In this document: piece after piece, positions 1 through 9,412 of the stretch
Numbering within the stretch: the first letter of the stretch is position 1
How the letters are laid out: each line of letters begins with the position of its first letter
NCBI GenBank assembly: GCA_030740295.1
Contig: JASLXP010000757.1
Coordinates: forward strand, 1 to 9,412
From: Planctomycetota bacterium
Lineage (GTDB): Bacteria; Planctomycetota; PUPC01; JACPCR01
Length of the DNA: 9,412 bases
Reading direction: 5' to 3'
Notes under the pieces: generated by a model
The model's database searches: none
What the model was told of the DNA's origin: nothing
What the model saw: the letters and a program-made list of their open reading frames with translations, nothing else
Translations under genes and position numbers: made by a program

Positions 1-170
1 GGATCGAGTGCTTTGAATACAACGCCCATTCCGCCTCTGCCGACTTGCTGAATTATCTGAAAACGACCAATCCTGTCAGGGGCGTCGCTCTCGGTCAGCC
101 GACTCTTCTTTTCGGATGTTGTTGTTGGGTTGGAATTCAGCCTGGCGGATGTAACAGTTGCTGCGGCCAT
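1..170 (-). CDS. Serine/threonine protein kinase, N-terminal part (runs off the left edge)
   Basis: On the minus strand an open frame starts with ATG at 170 and runs out of the window after 56 codons. After a polar N-terminal stretch of about 33 residues (rich in Thr, Ser and Ala) comes R-I-G-R-F-Q-I-I-Q-Q-V-G-R-G-G-M-G-V-V-F, the start of a Hanks-type protein kinase domain. The glycine-rich ATP-binding loop GxGxxGxV is at residues 44-51, followed by the K-A-L-D typical of PknB-like bacterial kinases. The catalytic lysine, the HRD and DFG motifs and any sensor domain lie outside the window, so activity and substrate cannot be judged. The start is uncertain: no good Shine-Dalgarno precedes 170, and an in-frame ATG at 233 would add 21 residues. 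The family call is firm because the loop is diagnostic; the exact subfamily is not. Confidence 0.85.
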   Translation of the reverse strand, partial: MAAATVTSARLNSNPTTTSEKKSRLTESDAPDRIGRFQIIQQVGRGGMGVVFKALD

Positions 171-647
171 AATGCGATCTCGGTGCGTCGGGGAGCGGGG
201 CAGTTGCCCGGCCTTGCGCAAAGTCAATGCCATGTTTTCTGAACGCCTAAAGACCGAAGCCCGAGATCATCCTCTCCATCCTCTCACCCGAAACGCGATA
301 AACGACTTGGTAGGAACACCTTACAACCGGCCACGCGCCAAGGAAGAACTTCACCGCGAGGGGCGCGAATTACCGTTTTCCCGCAGGGGATGGATCATCC
401 GTCGCCAGCAGAATGGTCTGAATGGGCAAGGTTTTCCCGAAGGGGGCTTTCATCATCGATATCTTTTCCCCTGGCCGTTTTGCCCTGACTCCAATGTCAA
501 CAGTCTGTCATAGCTTTTGTGGCAAGTTTCCTCAGGAATCTGCCGGGACTTGGAGGCCGTTCTCAGAAGTAAAACCGGACACAATGTTCCAGTTTTGGGC
601 TTGAAACTTGTGCCCGGTGCTGACTGCGGTTCAAAGAACCGAGTATT
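171..647. other. 477-bp gap without a convincing gene
   Basis: This gap lies between the kinase start and the end of the acidic-protein gene, both on the minus strand, so it should hold the kinase promoter and leader. I found no convincing -35/-10 pair: a TTGACA (minus strand, 500-495) has no matching -10 box. The only coding-like item is a 28-codon minus-strand frame (456 to 370), preceded by AGGGGA at a suitable distance. It contains I-L-L-A-T-D-D-P-S-P-A, reminiscent of the start of universal stress proteins, and then stops. It could be a gene remnant or chance. A hairpin near 627-641 is listed separately. I see no RNA gene or mobile element. Confidence 0.5.
627..641 (-). terminator. Hairpin just after the acidic-protein stop codon, possible weak terminator
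   Basis: CGGTTC (627-632) and GAACCG (636-641) form a perfect 6-bp inverted repeat around a 3-nt loop. One bulged base at 626 lets three more pairs (623-625 with 642-644) extend it. It begins a few bases past the TGA of the minus-strand gene ending at 648, where a transcription terminator is expected. No T-run follows on the minus strand, so it is not a classic intrinsic terminator and may only protect the 3' end. Confidence 0.3.
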
Positions 648-1448
648 TCAGATGCCGAAGTCATTTCTCAGAAGCGCATGATCGAACAGGCTGACTCCCT
701 GCAGCGTAAACGGATTCGCGAGTTCCATTGGCTCTTGATTGAGCCGAAGGTCAGCAAACTGCGGAAGGTCACCGAAACCAAATGGCCGGAGCGGTCTGCC
801 CGGATTCAGGGGATTGAATCGGAAACCATTGAAGCCACGGTTTACCAGCTCGAGGTCGAAACCAAAGTTGCCATCAGCGCTGTTGCCGGAGCTGTCGGCG
901 GCGCCGGAGCCGCCAGCGGCGTCATCAGCTCCTTCGATGATGACAGGGATACTGACGGATGAGTTTTCATTCTGTCCGGAGGCCGTAGTCGTGGTTTCCG
1001 CTCCCGTTCCCGAGTCACTATCTCCAGACTGTGTCTGCGCCGAATCAGAATCCACATTCTGGCCTGAACCGGATGACTGATCTGCATTTGTGGTATTGCT
1101 GCCAGCGTCCGAAGCGGAGGAGGCATCTCCTGCATGGTCTTCTACTGTATCCTCCTCGCCGGAAGCCGTCGCGCTATTCTGCGTCTCTTCAACATTTACG
1201 GTCGTTTCGGATTCGAGCGTAGCCGATGTAAGACTGGGAATCTCCAGTGGGCGAAAGATGTCCGTAGCGAAAATGCGCGAGCCATTCTGGAATCGCTCGA
1301 GGGCATCTGAGGAAAGACTCACGGTGTCTGGGGTCGAAGGTGCCGAGGGCGTCTGGGGCACATAGACCTCGACTGTGCGGGTAATCGTGTTGATGGTAGT
1401 GTCGCGGCGGACGGGCATGAAGCCGCCTTGGACTGTTGAAACAGCCAT
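648..1448 (-). CDS. Acidic low-complexity protein of unknown function, 266 aa
   Basis: I do not recognise this family. The start at 1448 is set by AGAGGAGG (1456-1463) seven bases upstream, the best ribosome site in the window; the frame is open further upstream only from a TTG with no such site. The N-terminus (residues 1-70) is ordinary, with a V-S-L-S-S-D-A-L-E stretch at 43-51 resembling short motifs seen in FlgM-like and other small bacterial proteins, which is too little for a call. Residues about 80-195 are rich in Ser, Asp, Gly, Thr, Ala and Asn and look disordered; there is no Lys or Arg between residues 66 and 204. The C-terminus (about 196-266) is rich in Phe, Asn, Pro and Leu. The whole protein lacks Lys, Cys and Trp. 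No signal peptide or membrane segment is seen. The ordered-disordered-ordered layout would suit a linker or scaffold, which is inference only. Confidence 0.7.
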   Translation of the reverse strand: MAVSTVQGGFMPVRRDTTINTITRTVEVYVPQTPSAPSTPDTVSLSSDALERFQNGSRIFATDIFRPLEIPSLTSATLESETTVNVEETQNSATASGEEDTVEDHAGDASSASDAGSNTTNADQSSGSGQNVDSDSAQTQSGDSDSGTGAETTTTASGQNENSSVSIPVIIEGADDAAGGSGAADSSGNSADGNFGFDLELVNRGFNGFRFNPLNPGRPLRPFGFGDLPQFADLRLNQEPMELANPFTLQGVSLFDHALLRNDFGI

Positions 1449-1455
1449 GGTGTAG

Positions 1456-1463
1456 CCTCCTCT
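1456..1463 (-). promoter_or_regulatory. Strong ribosome binding site that sets the start at 1448
   Basis: The minus strand reads AGAGGAGG, a near-perfect anti-16S match, seven bases before the ATG at 1448. It decides between this start and a longer frame opening at a TTG at 1580, whose extra 44 residues (rich in Arg, Pro and Cys) look unlike the rest of the protein. Confidence 0.8.
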
Positions 1464-1655
1464 GCCGGCCAGATTGCAGACGCAGACTGGCGGCCTGGGT
1501 AAATGGAACGATAGGTGGTTTGAATCTCCTGAAAGCCATGGCCGCCTGGGCAGGCAGGACCGTGCTCTCGTTTTTGGCAACAGGATTTTCGGAGGCTCCG
1601 AGATTCCTTTAGGGATTACTTTCAGTTTTTTTGAAGTCCCGCACCAGCTTCTGAT

Positions 1656-2207
1656 TTAATGTCCGCCTTCGACGAAGGACAGCTCGATGTCCGCGTTCTC
1701 TTCCGTTGCCACCTGGTCGAGGGCATTACGAAGTTCGTTGAGGTTCAGGGACTGGGGCACGTCGACCTCCATGTCCATCTGAAACAACGGCGTACCAGAG
1801 ATGGGTGCGGGATGGGAAGAGGTGGATGCGGAAACGATGTTGACCCCCAGCCTGGTTAGGCTGCGGCTGATGGCATGAATGATGCCCTCGTGATCCGCAG
1901 CGTAGGTCTTAATCAGATAAGGCACCGCTCCGGTCTGGCGGTGCAGCTCGGGCGCAGCAGTACTGCGTATACGTATCTCGAGCCCGCTGCTTTCCGCGAG
2001 CTTTGAAATCTCATCATCCAGTGCTTCGACCGTCGTACCTGAAAGAAGCATCAACAGCCCAAATTCTCCACCCAGAATGGCCATCCGGCTCTCTTCGACG
2101 TTACACCCGCGTCCGCTCAGGAATTCCGTCACCTCAGCAACGATACCTGGCCGGTCAGTGCCGACCGCGGAGAGGACTACATAATCACGTGAGGCGGAAT
2201 TGGACAT
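1656..2207 (-). CDS. Two-ACT-domain protein, GcvR-like (glycine cleavage repressor family)
   Basis: The 183-residue product consists almost entirely of two ACT domains. The first covers about residues 9-80, with V-V-L-S-A-V-G-T-D-R-P-G-I-V at its start; the second covers about 96-178, with the matching A-A-D-H-E-G-I-I-H-A-I-S-R. The paired D-R-P-G and D-H-E-G turns are the ligand-binding loop signature of ACT domains. Length and layout match the GcvR family, which in Escherichia coli binds glycine and the activator GcvA to control the glycine cleavage operon. No gcv genes or GcvA are nearby, so the ligand and target are unknown here, and many phyla carry such proteins as generic amino-acid sensors. 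The ATG at 2207 is preceded by a pyrimidine-rich stretch with no Shine-Dalgarno, so translation may be leaderless or SD-independent. It is transcribed away from the small-gene pair at 2438-2962. Confidence 0.85.
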   Translation of the reverse strand: MSNSASRDYVVLSAVGTDRPGIVAEVTEFLSGRGCNVEESRMAILGGEFGLLMLLSGTTVEALDDEISKLAESSGLEIRIRSTAAPELHRQTGAVPYLIKTYAADHEGIIHAISRSLTRLGVNIVSASTSSHPAPISGTPLFQMDMEVDVPQSLNLNELRNALDQVATEENADIELSFVEGGH

Positions 2208-2728: not shown

Positions 2729-2962
2729 ATGAGTCCACAAAGCCTCAAAAAACTGATCGAAAAGCTAGGCATTGACGCTGCAGATCTGGCGGCGCGTTTG
2801 GGCGGAGCCAGAGAAAACTACGAAAGCCTGCTGGAGAAGGAACGAATTCCGTTTCCTGTGTGGGACGCTCTACAGCGGATGGCATTCCGGGAAGGGCTAA
2901 TCTGGGATGCGGGCTCTGAATCATGGTTGAATCAGTCACAAGGGGCTACTACTCACGTTTAA
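2729..2962 (+). CDS. Small protein with a helix-turn-helix-like segment, 77 aa
   Basis: The ATG at 2729 has a strong GAGGAG at 2715-2720, eight bases upstream and overlapping the previous stop codon. Residues 5-52 read as a string of helices: S-L-K-K-L-I-E-K-L-G-I-D-A-A-D-L-A-A-R-L-G-G-A, then a third helix and R-I-P-F-P-V-W-D-A-L-Q-R-M. This spacing resembles a Cro/C1 (XRE-type) DNA-binding fold, though the recognition helix (A-R-E-N-Y-E-S-L-L) is atypical. The C-terminal tail (about 58-77) is polar. A two-gene unit of a small protein and a DNA-binding partner is a common shape for toxin-antitoxin or small autoregulated operons, but the first gene matches no toxin I know. The next gene, rsmA, starts 35 bp downstream and may be cotranscribed. 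Confidence 0.6.
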   Translation: MSPQSLKKLIEKLGIDAADLAARLGGARENYESLLEKERIPFPVWDALQRMAFREGLIWDAGSESWLNQSQGATTHV

Positions 2963-2997
2963 CCCGCCCGCCCATTAGGAGCATTAACCTCCCAGCC

Positions 2998-3918
2998 ATG
3001 TCTATCCGGCTGCGAACCAAATCAGATCTCAAGGCCGTCTTTCAGGAATACAACATCTGGGCGCGCAAAGAGCTCGGCCAGAATTTTCTGATCGATCACA
3101 ATTTGCTGCGCTTTCTTGTCGAATCCGGCGAGGTCGGCGAAAACGATTTTCTGCTGGATATCGGCGCCGGTACCGGATTACTGACGCGCAAGCTCGCCCA
3201 GCGTGCGTGGAAGGTCTGGGCCGTCGAGATCGATGCCCGGATGTTCGATTTCTGCTCGGCATACACATCCGGGCTCACGAACATCCGGATGGTTAACCGG
3301 GATGTCCTCAAGAACAAATACAACCTCGACCCGGAGCTCGAGGCCGAGATCCTCGCAGAGCTTCAGTCGCGGCCTGAGACAAGATTCAAAGTTGTCTCGA
3401 ACCTCCCTTACAGCATCAGCACCCTGATCATTCCAATTCTGCTCCAGGGCCCTATCCCGGTTGAACGCATGGTTCTCACCGTGCAGAAAGAGGTCGGCGA
3501 ACGTCTCGTTGCTGAGCCCGGCACCAAGGACTATGGCAGTCTTTCGGTGATCATCCAGACTTGGGCCAATGTCGAAATCCTGAAGATCCTGCCAAATACT
3601 GTCTTCTGGCCGCAGCCGAAGGTGGACTCGGCAATCGTGGGCATTACCCCGCGTTTTGATCGCCTTGAGCGGATCGACGACACGGACCTTTTCCGCACGA
3701 TCGCCCAGGGACTCTTCTCCGCCAGACGTAAGAAGGCAGTAAACGCACTGAAGCAGGACGAACGGGTGATGGTGCCCGCCGAGACTCTCAAACGAGGATT
3801 CGAGATCGCTGCCATCGACCCTGACCGCCGCGGCGAGGATTTGAGCGTGGATGAAGTCATCTCGCTGGCAAATGCCATCGAAGAAGCCCGTCAAACAATT
3901 GAAGCCCCTACGGGGTAA
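2998..3918 (+). CDS. rsmA: 16S rRNA (adenine1518-N6/adenine1519-N6)-dimethyltransferase RsmA (KsgA)
   Basis: This cytoplasmic enzyme uses S-adenosylmethionine to dimethylate two adjacent adenines in the last helix of 16S rRNA during assembly of the small ribosomal subunit. The 306-residue product has the full signature in order: K-E-L-G-Q-N-F-L at 24-31, the SAM-binding D-I-G-A-G-T-G at 54-60, the ribose-binding acidic residue in V-E-I-D (E77), and the catalytic N-L-P-Y at 135-138. The small C-terminal helical domain follows, with F-S-A-R-R-K-K. Between the N-R-D-V-L segment and NLPY sits an extra stretch of roughly 15-20 residues (K-Y-N-L-D-P-E-L-E-A-E-I and on) compared with Escherichia coli KsgA. 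I chose ATG 2998 because an upstream ATG at 2923 would overlap the previous gene by 40 bp and add non-conserved residues; TAGGAG at 2976-2981 is rather far from it. dsbD starts 47 bp downstream. Confidence 0.95.
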   Translation: MSIRLRTKSDLKAVFQEYNIWARKELGQNFLIDHNLLRFLVESGEVGENDFLLDIGAGTGLLTRKLAQRAWKVWAVEIDARMFDFCSAYTSGLTNIRMVNRDVLKNKYNLDPELEAEILAELQSRPETRFKVVSNLPYSISTLIIPILLQGPIPVERMVLTVQKEVGERLVAEPGTKDYGSLSVIIQTWANVEILKILPNTVFWPQPKVDSAIVGITPRFDRLERIDDTDLFRTIAQGLFSARRKKAVNALKQDERVMVPAETLKRGFEIAAIDPDRRGEDLSVDEVISLANAIEEARQTIEAPTG

Positions 3919-3965
3919 TCTGAACACATGTGCATCGACCAATGTGGATGCAACCCACAAAAAGT

Positions 3966-6353
3966 ATGAACAAGACTTTTCTACATTTTCTGGCGCTGCT
4001 CTTCGTCACCACAAGCCTTTCCGCTCAATTCGATTTTGGTGAGCCCGCCGAGACGGAGAACATCACATTTCAGGTAAAGGCATCCAAGGCCGAGGCCGCT
4101 GCCGGCAGCAGCCTGGAGGTGAGTGTGACCGCAAGGATGGACGACGGGTGGCACATTTACGGTTTCAAAGAATATGAAGGCTCAGTTGCTACCGTCATTG
4201 CGCTCGATGCAGGACAGCCATTCAAGCTGGGCGACGTCACATCGCCTCGGCCGAAGCACGTCAAGAAGAAATTTGGGGAAACGGACCTCGAATACGATTC
4301 GTTCGAAGGTGAAGTGACGTTCACCTTGCCGATCACGATCAGTGAGGATGCCCCTGCGGGCGAGGCCACGTTGAAAGGATCTGTGAAGTACCAGATCTGC
4401 TCCGATAAAATCTGTCTGCTACCTAAGACCTATGCGTTTTCGTTACCTTTGAGGATAACGGAAGCATCGGGGGCCGATGAAGAGACGAATCCCCTCGGGG
4501 CCTTCCCGGCTCAAGGTGATGGCGCGGAGAAAGAGAAACAGCCCGCTGAGGAGGCCGGACCTGACGGCCGTGTTCGGTCGTCCAAGCTCTCTTACAGAAT
4601 CGAACCTGCGGCTAAGAGTGTTAGAGCGGGAGATGCCTTTGAACTTCGCGTGGAAGTGAAGCTCGACGCAGGCTGGCACGTTTACGGCATAGATCGCTCC
4701 GGCGTCGGCATTAAGACAGCGGTCGAACTGGAGGATGGATCATTTTCACTGGCCGGCCCATTGGCCAGCGACCAGAAACCGAAGACCGCCCCGGCCACTG
4801 AATTTACGCCGGCCTACGATTACTACGAAGGGAACGTCCTTTTCACCCAACGCATCCAGGCAGCAGCCGGCACAAAGCCGGGCACCCAGAAACTACGAGG
4901 CACATTTCACTTTCAGGAATGCAATGACAACTCTTGCTTGCGACCATCGAAAAGAGATTTCGCATTCGACATCGAAGTCCTCCCTGCAAGCGATGCTGCC
5001 CTGCCTTCTCCAGCTACCGATAAGCCGGAAACCCAGAAGACAGAGGGCTCGAAGGATGTTGCCAAGGTCGGGTTCATCGCGTTCCTCGGTCTCGCATTTG
5101 GCGCCGGTCTGTTGACGCTCATCACGCCATGTGTTTTTCCGCTGATTCCGGTGACCATCTCTTACTTTCTGAAACAGTCGCAGGACAGCGGCTCGAGCCC
5201 GTTCAACCTGAGCCTCTGTTATGGCGCGGGCATCATCGGCAGCTTCACAGGGCTCGGATTCATTCTCACCGTTTTTTTCAGCGCGAATGCTGCGCGGCAG
5301 TTTGCAGCAAATCCGATCGTCAATCTCATCATCGGAATTCTGTTCGTCGTATTCGCATTCAGCCTCCTCGGAGCGTTTGATCTGAGGCTCCCCGCGTCCC
5401 TTCAACAGAAACTGAATTTCATGGGCAAGGGCGGTTATGCGGGCGCGCTCTTCCTGGGACTGACCTTCGCAGTGACCGCGTTCGCGTGCACTGCGCCGTT
5501 TGCTTCGGCCGTGTTGCTGGCCGCGAGCCAGGGCGATTATTTCTGGTCCATCCTCGGCATGCTGGCCTACTCGGGCACCATGGCTGTCCCTTTCTTTATC
5601 CTGGGCCTCTTCCCTTCATTGATGAAGAACCTGCCAAAGAGCGGTGGATGGATGAACGCGGTTAAAGTCAGTTTCGGTTTCTTCGAGCTCGCCGCGGCCT
5701 TCAAGTTTTTTTCAAACGTTGACTGGCAGATGGGCTGGGGCATTCTTCCCCGCTCGATCGTTCTTTCGACATGGGTCATCTGTTCCGCGTTCGTCTGTCT
5801 CTATTTGCTGCACCTTTTCAGGCTGCCTCATGACACGCCACAGGATTCGATCAGCGTGACCCGTGTGACCTTCGCGCTCATCACCGGAGCGCTCGCTCTC
5901 TGGATGGCCACCGGCCTCGGCGGCAAACCGCTCGGCTACCTGGAGGCCTTTCTACCGCCAGAACAGTTTTCCACGGACGCGCCAAAGGAGGTGAAGCAGT
6001 GGCAGAAAGATGTCTCCTTCGAGGAAGGCCGAAAGAGCGCTCGAGAACAGGGCAAACCGCTCGTGCTCGAATTCACTGGTTTTACATGAATTAACTGCCG
6101 CCAGATGGAATCGACCGTGCTCGTCGATTCAGAAGTTCAGACCGAAGTAAGCCGCTTTGTTTCACTCAAACTCTACACGGACGGCAATCCCGCCGAGCGT
6201 GCCGAGCGCAACCAGAAGCTGCAGAAGGAAACTTTCAACAGCGTGGCCCTGCCCTTCTTCGCGCTTTACGATTCAAACGGGCAACTGGCAAAGACCTTCC
6301 AAGGCACGGCGGGCAAGCAGCAGTTTCTCGAATTGCTGCGTGGCGTGAAATAG
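3966..6353 (+). CDS. dsbD: Selenocysteine-containing thiol:disulfide interchange protein DsbD (UGA at 6087 read as Sec)
   Basis: DsbD moves electrons from cytoplasmic thioredoxin across the inner membrane to periplasmic thiol partners. Read through the TGA, the product has 795 residues. From ATG 3966: signal peptide (N-K-T-F-L-H-F-L-A-L-L-F-V, probable cleavage after L-S-A); a first N-terminal DsbD domain with C145-x4-C150; a second with C319-x4-C324; a membrane core at about 369-650 with T-P-C389-V-F-P-L-I-P and F-A-C508-T-A-P, the redox pair of the DsbD core; then a thioredoxin-like domain at about 680-795. There, F-T-G-F-T is followed by TGA (residue 708) and I-N-C711-R-Q-M-E, with A-L-P763-F-F as the cis-proline loop. 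Relatives have Cys at the TGA position, so the active site reads UxxC. The frame is unbroken on both sides up to TAG at 6351. Without Sec insertion the product would stop at 707 residues, lacking its redox centre. No clear Shine-Dalgarno is seen; upstream starts at 3930, 3942 and 3948 fit the signal peptide less well. Confidence 0.88.
6087..6130 (+). promoter_or_regulatory. Sec UGA codon with bacterial SECIS-like hairpin
   Basis: TGA (6087-6089) is followed after 18 nt by GAATCGAC (6108-6115), a 7-nt loop CGTGCTC (6116-6122) and GTCGATTC (6123-6130), a perfect 8-bp stem. Bacterial SECIS elements lie in the coding region just after the UGA and bind SelB; known ones have a short stem, an apical loop about 16-37 nt from the UGA and a G among its first two bases, often followed by U. 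Here the loop begins 26 nt after the UGA with C-G-U, which fits. There is no bulged U in the stem as in Escherichia coli fdhF, but this feature varies among phyla. The hairpin lies within codons of the thioredoxin domain. Confidence 0.8.
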
Positions 6354-6493: not shown

Positions 6494-9412
6494 ATGAAAA
6501 GCCAGAGAATGTTCCTGTCGATCAGCCTGATATTAGCGCCCACCTTCCTTACTAATTTCGCATTCACCGAGCCGCCGGAAAAAGTCTGGCCTGAAGTACT
6601 TCTGATCGACGATTTTGAAAAGGGCACAGGCGCATGGGAAAACCAGGACACAGGCAAACTCGAGTGGGTGAGCGACGCGGTCGAGGGCAACAAGGCGCTC
6701 AAGTGGACGGCCGAGGATGACGGCATTGGTCATATCGTGCTCAAGAATCCGGATCGCTCGAAGATCGATTTCAGCCAGTACGACCTCCTGACATTCTGGG
6801 TGAAGTTCGAGGGCAAGCGCATCTGGAATCTCAACCCGATCGTGCAGCAGTTCCCTGCGGTTTATGGCTATCGTGGTCTTTACTACAGCGTCGACACGAT
6901 GGAGAAATTCGGCGAGTGGTTTCTTTACACGCAGGATTTACGCCGATGGGAAAACGCCTGGCCAACTACCTTTGACAAGGACAAACAGGAGTTTCAGTTC
7001 GAGGTCCACCAGCTTGCCGGCGCCGGTCACACACAGGTGTACCTCGATGGCATTCGCCTGCTGAGGAATCCTCTTGGGATCGAGCGATCGTATCCCGGCA
7101 AATGGGGCAGGCAGAAGGATGGCTCGCAGGTAACGCACTTCAGAGTCAGGGTGAAAAACAGCGGCGCAAAGCCGATGAGCGTCAGAGCATCACTGGTGCC
7201 CCGGACGCTGAAACGATTCGAAGCTCAGATGCCCGACCGGCCCCTATCGTTGCTGCCTGGCGAGGTGGGTGAGGTATTCGTTCGTATCGTCGCCCCGGCA
7301 AAGGTGATCGCGGAAGAGCCAAGACATTACGGTGAAACCGCTACCATCGCACTCAGGGTGGCGGATGTGCCCGGCCTCGTGCTGCACACGGAGCTCTCTG
7401 CAGGGACGCGGCCGGAGAAGATGCCGCATCCTTCCATCCTGATGGACTCCCGGCGTATGCTGGCCTTGCAGCGCAGATGGAAGAATCCTGAGTCGCGGAA
7501 AGACATCCCTCGCGGCCTTCAACATTTTGTTCGGCTGGGCGAAAAAGCACTCGATTACACGCCCGGCTACCCGCCCCTTGCGTGCGCGGGACGCAACTCG
7601 TGCTTTGCGGAATCCTGCCTGAAAAATGCAATGGTCCTGAAGGGTACAGCGCTCAAAGAGATTCGCGTTCCTAATCTGCCGTTCAGCACCTACCAGTGCT
7701 CGCAATGCGGACGCACTTACACGGGCCCGATGTTCGACGCGGGCATGAAGGGCTGGGGCGGCAAACATCTTTCAAACGCAGCCCAGGCCCGCAATCTCGG
7801 TTTCGCTTACGGCATTACCGGGCGCAAAGAATTCGCGACCAGGGCCGCGGCCATCCTGCGAGGGTATATCGATACTTACCTGAAGCTGCCCATCGTCGCG
7901 CCCGAAGCCGGCAGCCCGGTGAACAGCCATACATCGGGGGCCGTCCGAATTGCTTCCACTTACATGAGGGAGCAGGTCTGGCTGACGGGATTGGCCATCG
8001 CGCTGGATTTCATTCGACCGGCCGGTTTGCTCACAGATACGGAACTCACCGGCATCCGAGACAAAGTCTTTGTCCCGTCTGCAAACCTGATGATGGATCA
8101 CAAAGTAGGAGCGATGAATCTGCAGTGGATGATCGAATCCGCCTCCCTCTACGCGGGCCTCGCCTCCGAGTCCCCCAGCCTGCTGGCTCGTTCAATGTAT
8201 GACAAGCACGGCATCACGAATCTGATCCGCGTGGGGTATCTTTCGGACGGCAACTGGTGGGAGAATCCGAGCTATCAGAACGTGGCAAACGGTGTGGCGT
8301 TCCCCGTGCTGGCCACGTGCATCAATGGTGGTCTGCTCAAGCTCGACGACCAGCTCACCAGGATTTTCAAAGCAGCCTACAAACTCTACGGTCCCGATGG
8401 GCGGGGCCCGACCTTGGGAACCGGCGGCCCGGGTGGCTATCACTACAGCGATAACGCAGTCCATTCACTGGCCGGTTTTGTCAAAGACCCTGAGCTCGCC
8501 TGGGTAGCGCATCACCGCAAGTTGTGGAGGGCATGGTCCGGCGGCGGCCAGCCTTACAACAGCTACCTCTGGGCCCTGACCTGGCAAAGCAAACCGAAAG
8601 TGACAAAAGAGAACACGGTCTCGCCCATCCCCAACCAGACGACCGTCCTGCCTGAATACGGCGGCATCGCGATGCGTGTCCCGGACGCGGGCAACTACTG
8701 TTACATGCACTTCGGCCGTGAGCTCGTGCACGGCCATCGAAACAAGCTCTCCATCAACGCCTACGCAAAAGGCGGCTGGTTCGTACGCAACGTGATGGGC
8801 GGCTACGGGAGCAATTTCAAGAACTTCCTGGAGACAATCGCCAGCTCCACCTCGATCATGATCGACGGCGCAAATCCTGACGCGGATACCGGCGAGCTGA
8901 TCTACCAGAGATCCGGCAAAGGCTGGGAGGCAGCGGCCGCTCGCGAGGTCGGTGCCTACAAAGACGTAGAGCACGAAAGAGCACTCGTACAGACAAAAGA
9001 GGCGCTCATCGTAATCGATCGATGCCAGGCGAGTAAGGAGCACAGATACGATTGGCTCTACCACACCAGCCTCACCAGGCTCAGCCTGGCGACGGAAGGA
9101 AGGAAAGAATCGAAGGCCGAGAGATTCGGCGAATCCGTTCTTTACGAATCACTGCATCCGACAGGCAAATTTGATTTGCCGACCCAAGCTGTCTTGAAAC
9201 GACCGGACGGGAGCGGCCTCAGGATTCTGTTTGCCGGTAAAGGCGAGCTATTGTCTTTCAAAGCACTCAGGAAGACAGACGGCCTGCTCTGGCGAAAGAA
9301 GGGCAAGACGACCAGCTTCGCATGCGTCTACCTGCCCTATGCAAAAGACGAGGAGGTGACAGGCAGTATCGCTCCTCTGAAGGTGACCGATGCAGCAGGT
9401 AAGGGCGTGGGA
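6494..9412 (+). CDS. Secreted heparinase II/III-like polysaccharide lyase with N-terminal beta-sandwich domain (partial, open at the right edge)
   Basis: The frame runs unbroken for 973 codons to the window end. ATG 6494 begins a Sec signal peptide (K-S-Q-R, then M-F-L-S-I-S-L-I-L-A), with only a weak GAG upstream. About residues 30-200 form a domain starting L-L-I-D-D-F-E-K-G and ending V-Y-L-D-G-I-R, resembling CIA30- or carbohydrate-binding beta-sandwiches. A predicted beta-rich linker follows. From about 310 comes the helical toroid of heparinase II/III and alginate-lyase-like enzymes, with Y-Q-C402-S-Q-C405-G (a CxxCG pair seen in this group), M-N542-L-Q-W, and D585-G-N-W-W-E-N-P-S-Y594, where a catalytic Tyr usually lies. 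The C-terminal beta-sandwich carries H746-G-H-R-N-K-L-S-I, the family's metal/active-site region. Such lyases cleave uronic-acid polysaccharides by beta-elimination outside the cytoplasm. The substrate is not predictable, and no sulfatase, transporter or other polysaccharide gene is visible nearby. Confidence 0.85.
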   Translation, partial: MKSQRMFLSISLILAPTFLTNFAFTEPPEKVWPEVLLIDDFEKGTGAWENQDTGKLEWVSDAVEGNKALKWTAEDDGIGHIVLKNPDRSKIDFSQYDLLTFWVKFEGKRIWNLNPIVQQFPAVYGYRGLYYSVDTMEKFGEWFLYTQDLRRWENAWPTTFDKDKQEFQFEVHQLAGAGHTQVYLDGIRLLRNPLGIERSYPGKWGRQKDGSQVTHFRVRVKNSGAKPMSVRASLVPRTLKRFEAQMPDRPLSLLPGEVGEVFVRIVAPAKVIAEEPRHYGETATIALRVADVPGLVLHTELSAGTRPEKMPHPSILMDSRRMLALQRRWKNPESRKDIPRGLQHFVRLGEKALDYTPGYPPLACAGRNSCFAESCLKNAMVLKGTALKEIRVPNLPFSTYQCSQCGRTYTGPMFDAGMKGWGGKHLSNAAQARNLGFAYGITGRKEFATRAAAILRGYIDTYLKLPIVAPEAGSPVNSHTSGAVRIASTYMREQVWLTGLAIALDFIRPAGLLTDTELTGIRDKVFVPSANLMMDHKVGAMNLQWMIESASLYAGLASESPSLLARSMYDKHGITNLIRVGYLSDGNWWENPSYQNVANGVAFPVLATCINGGLLKLDDQLTRIFKAAYKLYGPDGRGPTLGTGGPGGYHYSDNAVHSLAGFVKDPELAWVAHHRKLWRAWSGGGQPYNSYLWALTWQSKPKVTKENTVSPIPNQTTVLPEYGGIAMRVPDAGNYCYMHFGRELVHGHRNKLSINAYAKGGWFVRNVMGGYGSNFKNFLETIASSTSIMIDGANPDADTGELIYQRSGKGWEAAAAREVGAYKDVEHERALVQTKEALIVIDRCQASKEHRYDWLYHTSLTRLSLATEGRKESKAERFGESVLYESLHPTGKFDLPTQAVLKRPDGSGLRILFAGKGELLSFKALRKTDGLLWRKKGKTTSFACVYLPYAKDEEVTGSIAPLKVTDAAGKGVG

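What the first reader, a model, noticed from the sequence alone, without database searches (positions are those of the whole stretch)
6081..6353. DsbD with selenocysteine in place of the first active-site cysteine (UxxC)
A TGA interrupts an otherwise intact DsbD exactly where the first Cys of the thioredoxin-domain CxxC belongs. The same frame continues with I-N-C-R-Q-M-E and a complete thioredoxin fold including the cis-proline. Cys-to-Sec replacement at a redox-active position next to a remaining Cys is the classic pattern of bacterial selenoproteins. A transmembrane electron-transfer hub using Sec would have altered redox potential and speed, and might supply selenium-dependent partners in the periplasm. 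I recall Sec in many thioredoxin-fold families; whether DsbD-type selenoproteins have been described I cannot verify. An automated annotation would truncate this gene at 6089 or call a second small gene at 6105.
Basis: partly seen in the sequence, partly recalled or inferred. Interest (0 to 1): 0.93.

Follow-up and report, generated by a model that had tools for sequence, protein, structure and literature searches.

The report
Selenocysteine DsbD, widespread in Planctomycetota
A gene for a predicted membrane protein of the DsbD family, which likely carries reducing power across the cell membrane, has an in-frame TGA codon exactly where relatives have a catalytic cysteine; it is very likely read as the rare amino acid selenocysteine, and the same TGA stands in 92 related genomes, so many bacteria of this phylum probably run this pathway on selenium.

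Summary
TGA 6087-6089 lies in frame in a DsbD-family gene, at the first Cys of the C-terminal thioredoxin CxxC; 117 of 117 alignable homologues have Cys there. The frame runs on to TAG 6353. The nearest relative with DNA, a Planctomycetota MAG, keeps gene order, TGA and hairpin; its genome has selA, selB, tRNA-Sec and selD. Of 392 genomes of that phylum, the 150 best-matching rows and nine more genomes were read: 92 genomes have TGA at this codon, 46 have Cys, the rest are unreadable or remote; 87 of the 92 have selA. SECIS-like hairpins are commoner after TGA than after Cys codons (58 of 93 against 13 of 44). The domain-level idea is not new: a 2008 survey lists UxxC "thiol disulfide interchange protein" under cd02953. 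I found no account of a full-length membrane Sec-DsbD or its spread. Limits: the window's own genome is not held, its hairpin alone is not beyond chance (P 0.11), and there is no protein evidence.

The parts
3966..6353 (+). dsbD-like gene read through TGA; predicted 795-residue protein; GTG 3930 and ATG 3942 are other possible starts
   Evidence: Pfam DsbD_N, DsbD_TM, Thioredoxin_7 and Thioredoxin_2; NF001419 185 bits, below its 330-bit cut-off
4083..4442 (+). first N-terminal (alpha-like, immunoglobulin-type) domain, Cys pair at 4398-4400 and 4413-4415
   Evidence: DsbD_N, two stretches; Cys pair CSDKIC; strands in the model
4587..4982 (+). second N-terminal (alpha-like) domain, Cys pair at 4920-4922 and 4935-4937
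   Evidence: C331 and C336 invariant in 35 aligned proteins; model
5079..5918 (+). transmembrane (beta) domain, Cys at 5130-5132 and 5487-5489
   Evidence: PF02683 residues 384-595; helices to residue 663; C401 and C520 invariant
6000..6338 (+). C-terminal thioredoxin-fold (gamma) domain
   Evidence: Thioredoxin_7 and Thioredoxin_2; Foldseek 3f9u_A TMt 0.71, rmsd 2.2
6087..6089 (+). TGA, predicted selenocysteine codon, first residue of UINC
6096..6098 (+). second (resolving) Cys of the UxxC motif
   Evidence: invariant
6108..6130 (+). SECIS-like hairpin: 8-bp stem, 7-nt loop CGUGCUC (6116-6122), G at loop position 2, 26 nt between TGA and loop
   Evidence: meets the bSECIS model as given in PMC13188914; same stem in L001
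6105..6353 (+). 82-aa ORF that gene callers report separately, likely spurious
2923..3918 (+). rsmA/ksgA, upstream neighbour, same order in L001
   Evidence: TIGR00755 222 bits, cut-off 171; L001 96-1034
6494..9412 (+). heparinase II/III-like protein, downstream neighbour, runs off the window, same order in L001
   Evidence: PF07940 20.4 bits, below its cut-off of 24; L001 3726-6770

Best explanation
The window encodes a DsbD-family protein whose in-frame TGA (6087-6089) stands exactly at the first catalytic cysteine of its C-terminal thioredoxin domain, and this TGA is very likely decoded as selenocysteine. Inferred steps: SelB, Sec-tRNA and the hairpin at 6108-6130 would insert Sec. The protein would take electrons from cytoplasmic thioredoxin through the membrane domain (Cys 401 and 520, numbered from the GTG at 3930), pass them to the Sec720-Cys723 pair, and from there to the Cys pairs of one or both N-terminal domains (157/162, 331/336), which would reduce periplasmic clients. 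Sec would replace the residue that corresponds to E. coli Cys461, the attacking cysteine. When selenium or Sec-tRNA is short, translation would end at 6089 and leave a membrane protein without its gamma domain. Shown: position, conservation, recurrence, presence of the Sec machinery in a close relative. Not shown: insertion, redox chemistry, clients.
For: Cys at the TGA column in 117 of 117 alignable homologues. Same TGA in L001 and in 92 genomes. In 164 of 165 aligned stretches checked the only TGA, if any, is at this column (the exception is a second, upstream stretch of L074, not studied), and the 150 rows listed show one TGA or no stop inside, never TAA or TAG. G001, the genome of L001: tRNA-Sec 76.8 bits beside selB, selA 483 bits, selD with one TGA. 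selA in 87 of 92 Sec genomes and 36 of 46 Cys genomes (Fisher P 0.007); three of the five exceptions have selB over the cut-off. RNA: the 52 nt after TGA fold at mean -18.0 against -14.0 kcal/mol after Cys codons, at equal G+C 0.595 (n 93 and 44, P 8e-7); bSECIS-model hairpins with at least 6 bp in 58 of 93 against 13 of 44. No Trp reassignment: 10 TGG in dsbD, 25 in the next gene, no other TGA in either. The two membrane Cys and the second gamma Cys are kept wherever the column is filled. Purifying selection after the TGA.
Against: Own genome not held, so its sel genes are untested. The window's hairpin alone is weak: fold z -0.07, 91 of 200 shuffles as good; synonymous recoding P 0.11; 7 of 749 other codons of the gene have as good a stem at that spacing. 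No Rfam match. The Cys control set also folds somewhat better than its synonymous recodings (mean z -0.65, against -1.52 for Sec), and 13 of 44 Cys sites meet the 6-bp hairpin test. Two Sec genomes, G002 and G212, show neither selA nor selB over cut-off. The close relatives P0004 and P0005 have Cys, so Sec is not essential to the fold. Related sequences make all P values too small.
Confidence: 0.94

Rival explanations
1. The TGA is a real stop; the organism makes a DsbD without gamma domain, and the rest is a remnant or a separate small protein.
For: Gene callers report it so. A truncated product is expected at low selenium in any selenoprotein. Fourteen of 158 genomes have matches that end before the gamma site.
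Against: Purifying selection and unbroken frame after the TGA. TGA at the Cys column in 92 genomes, with no TAA or TAG inside any of the 150 rows listed. No in-frame ATG, GTG or TTG before 6105, so a separate protein would lack the motif.
Confidence: 0.03
2. TGA is read as Cys or Trp by a changed code or a suppressor tRNA, without selenium.
For: The column is Cys in relatives.
Against: The relative has the full Sec set. No other TGA in dsbD or in the next gene. ARAGORN calls the G001 tRNA with anticodon tca a tRNA-Sec.
Confidence: 0.02
3. Sequencing or assembly error in a Cys codon.
For: Metagenome assemblies carry errors.
Against: Same codon in the L001 record and in 92 genomes; the 82-aa fragment that the stop creates is on 23 contigs.
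Confidence: 0.01

Closest known systems
DsbD (E. coli type, cDsbD Cys461-Cys464)
   Same: Domain order, membrane Cys pair, thioredoxin-fold gamma domain with CxxC and cis-Pro site; profile match to the E. coli gamma domain 2fwe, E 8e-4
   Different: TGA for the attacking Cys; two alpha-like domains; E. coli Cys461 has an exceptionally high pKa of 10.6 (PMC3961690, passages), opposite to what Sec would give; PRK00293 score under cut-off
Trx-like 2 / thiol disulfide interchange protein selenoproteins (cd02953 in PMC2398784; three sequences in PMC1794560; PF13098 in PMC13188914)
   Same: UxxC motif in a thioredoxin-like domain named thiol:disulfide interchange protein; cd02953 is, from memory, the DsbD gamma domain
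   Different: Listed at domain level; no membrane DsbD, Planctomycetota or spread stated in the passages I read. I could not check the example record WP_011366075.1 for a membrane domain
ScsB
   Same: N-terminal domain of Proteus ScsB is the top Foldseek match (E 7.6e-8); tandem Ig-like N-terminal part (recalled)
   Different: TMt only 0.39, and unrelated Ig-type proteins score close behind; both N-terminal domains here have a Cys pair
TsoB (NF045694) and Trx7/PDZ selenoprotein (NF041199)
   Same: Other selenoproteins with a DsbD-like or Trx7 part; hits of 130.8 and 23.6 bits
   Different: Far below cut-offs 805 and 300; Sec motifs UxxxxU and CxxU in PMC13188914

Membership tests
DsbD | N-terminal Ig-like domain with Cys pair | tested here: met
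   PF11412 81.8 bits, two stretches; 3pfu TMt 0.74; Cys pairs
DsbD | Membrane domain with two redox Cys | tested here: met
   PF02683 109.6 bits; both Cys kept wherever the column is filled in Sec rows (92 and 91 of 94, the rest gaps)
DsbD | C-terminal thioredoxin domain with CxxC | tested here: met
   Thioredoxin_7 35.6 bits; first Cys replaced by TGA, second kept. Met only if TGA codes for Sec
DsbD | Over the curated cut-off of NCBIfam PRK00293 | tested here: not met
   185.3 against 330 bits; so DsbD-like family, not that model's set
DsbD | Electron transfer from cytoplasmic thioredoxin to periplasm | not testable with these tools
   needs biochemistry
Bacterial selenoprotein | In-frame TGA at a conserved Cys | tested here: met
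Bacterial selenoprotein | bSECIS hairpin (3-9 nt loop, 4-16 bp stem, G in first two loop positions, 16-37 nt from UGA) | tested here: met
   window meets it at 8 bp (model), but not beyond chance alone
Bacterial selenoprotein | selA, selB, tRNA-Sec, selD in the same genome | tested here: inconclusive
   own genome not held; all four in the nearest genome G001
Bacterial selenoprotein | Selenium in the purified protein | not testable with these tools
   needs 75Se or mass spectrometry

The most novel reading that the evidence does not exclude
In Planctomycetota DsbD is a selenoenzyme by default: the phylum's main route of reducing power to the periplasm runs through one selenocysteine at the position where E. 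coli holds the most deeply guarded cysteine of the thioredoxin family, it has switched between Sec and Cys several times, and it feeds other thioredoxin-fold selenoproteins, so the whole periplasmic reducing chain depends on selenium.
Probability: 0.35. Interest if true: 0.8.

Novelty: new variant of a known kind. Interest (0 to 1): 0.64.

Why it matters
DsbD is a main route for electrons across the inner membrane to periplasmic thiol proteins (PMC3961690, passages). If Sec does this job in a large part of a phylum, periplasmic redox balance there depends on selenium supply, and dsbD genes such as the 92 found here would be misread as a truncated protein plus an orphan fragment, as happened for this one. 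E. coli cDsbD guards its attacking cysteine with a pKa of 10.6; free Sec has a pKa near 5.2 (recalled). Paired Sec and Cys forms, such as this one and P0004/P0005 at 68% and 67% identity in the region searched, give a natural test of what that guard is for.

Tried and rejected
Rejected: Trp or Cys reassignment of TGA; pseudogene decay; sequencing error. Viral contigs: 11 stretches matched a pattern, none a relative. Rfam: nothing. ARAGORN on the window: nothing. Idea that Sec forms lose the acidic residue six before the active site (E. coli Asp455), which raises the Cys pKa: acidic in 42 of 94 Sec against 34 of 46 Cys rows (Fisher P 0.001), but over independent pairs on the tree nothing is left (median p 1), so I do not claim it; the window has Glu there. 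Synonymous-codon conservation in the hairpin between window and L001: 7 of 8 identical against 364 of 608, P 0.15.

Rows dropped: P0002, P0003 and P0006; six genomes with remote matches (G012, G028, G037, G045, G055, G056) and G022 before the selA table; the six remote loci plus L049 and L054 before the RNA tests, where one further short Sec row was not counted; four short rows and L049 and L054 before the tree. Rows past the first 150 were not listed and not read, so the Sec share is that of the DsbDs nearest to the window. In my typed selA list I marked eight weak matches as absent but let one equally weak one (G176) stand; none of these genomes is in the Sec/Cys table.

Full report
Observation. 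The + strand ORF from GTG 3930 (ATG 3942; likely ATG 3966) ends at TGA 6087-6089. Read with TGA as Sec it runs to TAG 6353. Pfam finds DsbD_N twice, DsbD_TM, Thioredoxin_7 and Thioredoxin_2. The TGA is the first position of the CxxC of the C-terminal thioredoxin domain: PDB 3f9u has FTGYGCVNCRKME against FTGFT-U-INCRQME. Of 120 listed homologues (the best of 4203), three end at this place; the other 117 all have Cys there. Neighbours are rsmA upstream and a heparinase-like gene downstream.

Not decay and not error. The protein database holds the truncated 715-aa form of this gene (P0002), an 88% identical form cut at the same place (P0003, which is the L001 gene), a 63% identical one cut at the same place (P0006), and small fragments that begin after the motif (P0122-P0125; P0125 is from the L001 contig), while P0004 and P0005 (68% and 67%) are full length with CVNC. 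The one genome scan gave nine loci; only L001 is close: Planctomycetota MAG casp150-mb.279. It has the same TGA, the same gene order and the same 8-bp hairpin stem. After the TGA the two genes differ 6, 6 and 26 times at codon positions 1, 2 and 3 over 86 codons, with no gap. That the window's organism belongs to Planctomycetota is inferred from this likeness.

Sec machinery. No genome is held for the window. In G001, the genome of L001: tRNA-Sec 76.8 bits at C164:2120-2209, also called tRNA-SeC by ARAGORN, right after selB on the same contig; selA 483 bits; selD 366 bits with one TGA, and a second selD match of 290 bits without TGA. The TGA of selD stands in NVRCAG-U-ASKLSP, the known SelD Sec site (recalled; UxxK in PMC13188914). 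Among PF00578 matches in 14 genomes, the listed rows show three or more TGA-bearing frames in each of ten genomes with Sec-DsbD, one each in G171 and G307 (Cys-DsbD, selA present), and none in G373 and G321 (Cys-DsbD, no selA). The list was cut, so these are lower bounds, and I did not check where in those frames the TGA lies.

Spread. In 59 relatives of G001, 54 have a DsbD-like match. In 392 genomes drawn from its phylum, 193 match at E 1e-30 or better and 199 do not; 150 rows were listed. All 150 loci were read, 140 from that call and and ten, plus nine further genomes. By genome: 92 with TGA at the column, 52 with Cys, 14 where the match ends before it, 158 in all. Dropping seven remote genomes leaves 92, 46 and 13. 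So at least 92 of the 392 sampled genomes carry the Sec form; about 40 weaker matches were not read. The Cys sites are TGC or TGT in the loci read. No genome read had both forms; G188 has two TGA forms. selA at E 1e-40 or better: 87 of 92, 36 of 46 and 3 of 13. Of the five Sec genomes without selA, G280, G264 and G214 have selB over the cut-off, and G264 also tRNA-Sec at 69.7 bits. G002 and G212 have neither; G002 has a tRNA match of 50.6 bits, a level that other tRNAs also reach, and three TGA-bearing PF00578 frames. In the 59 relatives, strong tRNA-Sec (my line: 58 bits or more) and selA over its cut-off are each in 39 genomes and agree in 38; 15 of 16 Sec genomes there have selA and 14 of 16 strong tRNA-Sec.

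SECIS. The published model asks for a 3-9 nt loop, a 4-16 bp stem, a G in the first two loop positions and 16-37 nt from UGA (PMC13188914, passages). The window fits: 8 bp, loop CGUGCUC, 26 nt. By itself this is not beyond chance: synonymous recoding gives as good a stem in 11% of draws, 7 of 749 other codons of the gene do too, and the fold energy is average. Across the set the signal is clear: lower fold energy after TGA than after the Cys codon at equal G+C, stronger departure from synonymous recoding (mean z -1.52 against -0.65), stems of 6 bp or more in 58 of 93 against 13 of 44 and of 8 bp or more in 22 of 93 against 1 of 44. Rows are related, so the P values are too small.

History. A quick tree of 159 rows (91 Sec, 68 Cys, the latter with homologues) needs 10 Sec/Cys changes, at least 7 on well-supported branches. 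In a careful tree of 40 rows the window pairs with G001 (Sec), and the Cys forms P0004 and P0005 fall in one strongly supported set of five with them and G002 (Sec). A return from Sec to Cys is the likely reading there; the method cannot tell gain from loss.

Mechanism. The two membrane Cys and the second gamma Cys are kept in Sec rows wherever the column is filled; in the window both N-terminal domains have a Cys pair. The alpha pairs were not counted in the other Sec genomes. The model, made with C for Sec (mean pLDDT 81, pTM 0.58), has a gamma domain like 3f9u (TMt 0.71) and an alpha-type domain like E. coli 3pfu (TMt 0.74); the top hit is the N-terminal part of ScsB. By analogy with E. coli, Sec720 corresponds to Cys461, whose pKa of 10.6 is said to protect the reduced domain from side reactions (PMC3961690, passages). 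Sec would be ionised at neutral pH (recalled), so faster exchange at the cost of that guard is the likely trade. This is inference.

What is known. A 2008 marine survey lists Trx-like 2 (Thiol disulfide interchange protein), cd02953, UxxC, 22 Sec sequences (PMC2398784, passages). A 2006 study lists three (PMC1794560, passages), and a 2026 review lists the family under PF13098 (PMC13188914, passages). A 2016 study reports Sec use in planctomycetes (PMC4807772, passages); its selenoprotein list is in a supplement that I could not read. No NCBIfam model passed its cut-off for this protein. My searches (open-licence papers only, listings and passages) showed no full-length Sec-DsbD. So the motif in this domain family is known; the full-length membrane form and its frequency in a phylum are the new part, as far as I could check.

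Noticed in passing
4083-4982: Tandem alpha-like domains, each with its own Cys pair, in the window; L001 aligns over the same length. P0004, P0005 and P0006 are about 160-175 residues shorter and appear to have one.
   Followed up: partly
L029 (G001 C37:2833-3759): selD of the relative carries an in-frame TGA at the usual SelD Sec site, followed by a stable hairpin.
   Followed up: yes
G001, G002, G097 and others, PF00578 matches: Several peroxiredoxin or TlpA-like frames with one in-frame TGA per genome; these planctomycetes seem rich in thioredoxin-fold selenoproteins that could be DsbD clients.
   Followed up: partly
G188 (L075, L097): Two different TGA-bearing dsbD genes in one genome.
   Followed up: no
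L074 (G305), upstream stretch of the same frame: A second aligned stretch upstream of the Sec-DsbD match holds another TGA; perhaps a further Sec-bearing thioredoxin domain.
   Followed up: no
G029, G232, G296, G304, G252, G174, G146, G187, G160, G173: DsbD matches that end before the gamma site, in genomes that also lack selA (G029 does have a 74-bit tRNA-Sec match); the gamma domain may be absent, diverged or separate.
   Followed up: no
648-1580, minus strand: ORF with a long Ser/Asp/Thr-rich low-complexity middle, no family match.
   Followed up: no
1656-2207, minus strand: Double ACT-domain protein, weakly like the glycine cleavage repressor (77 bits, cut-off 267).
   Followed up: no
3-233, minus strand: Start of a protein kinase-like gene that runs off the window (weak hit, 20.5 bits, to a defence kinase model with cut-off 460).
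   Followed up: no
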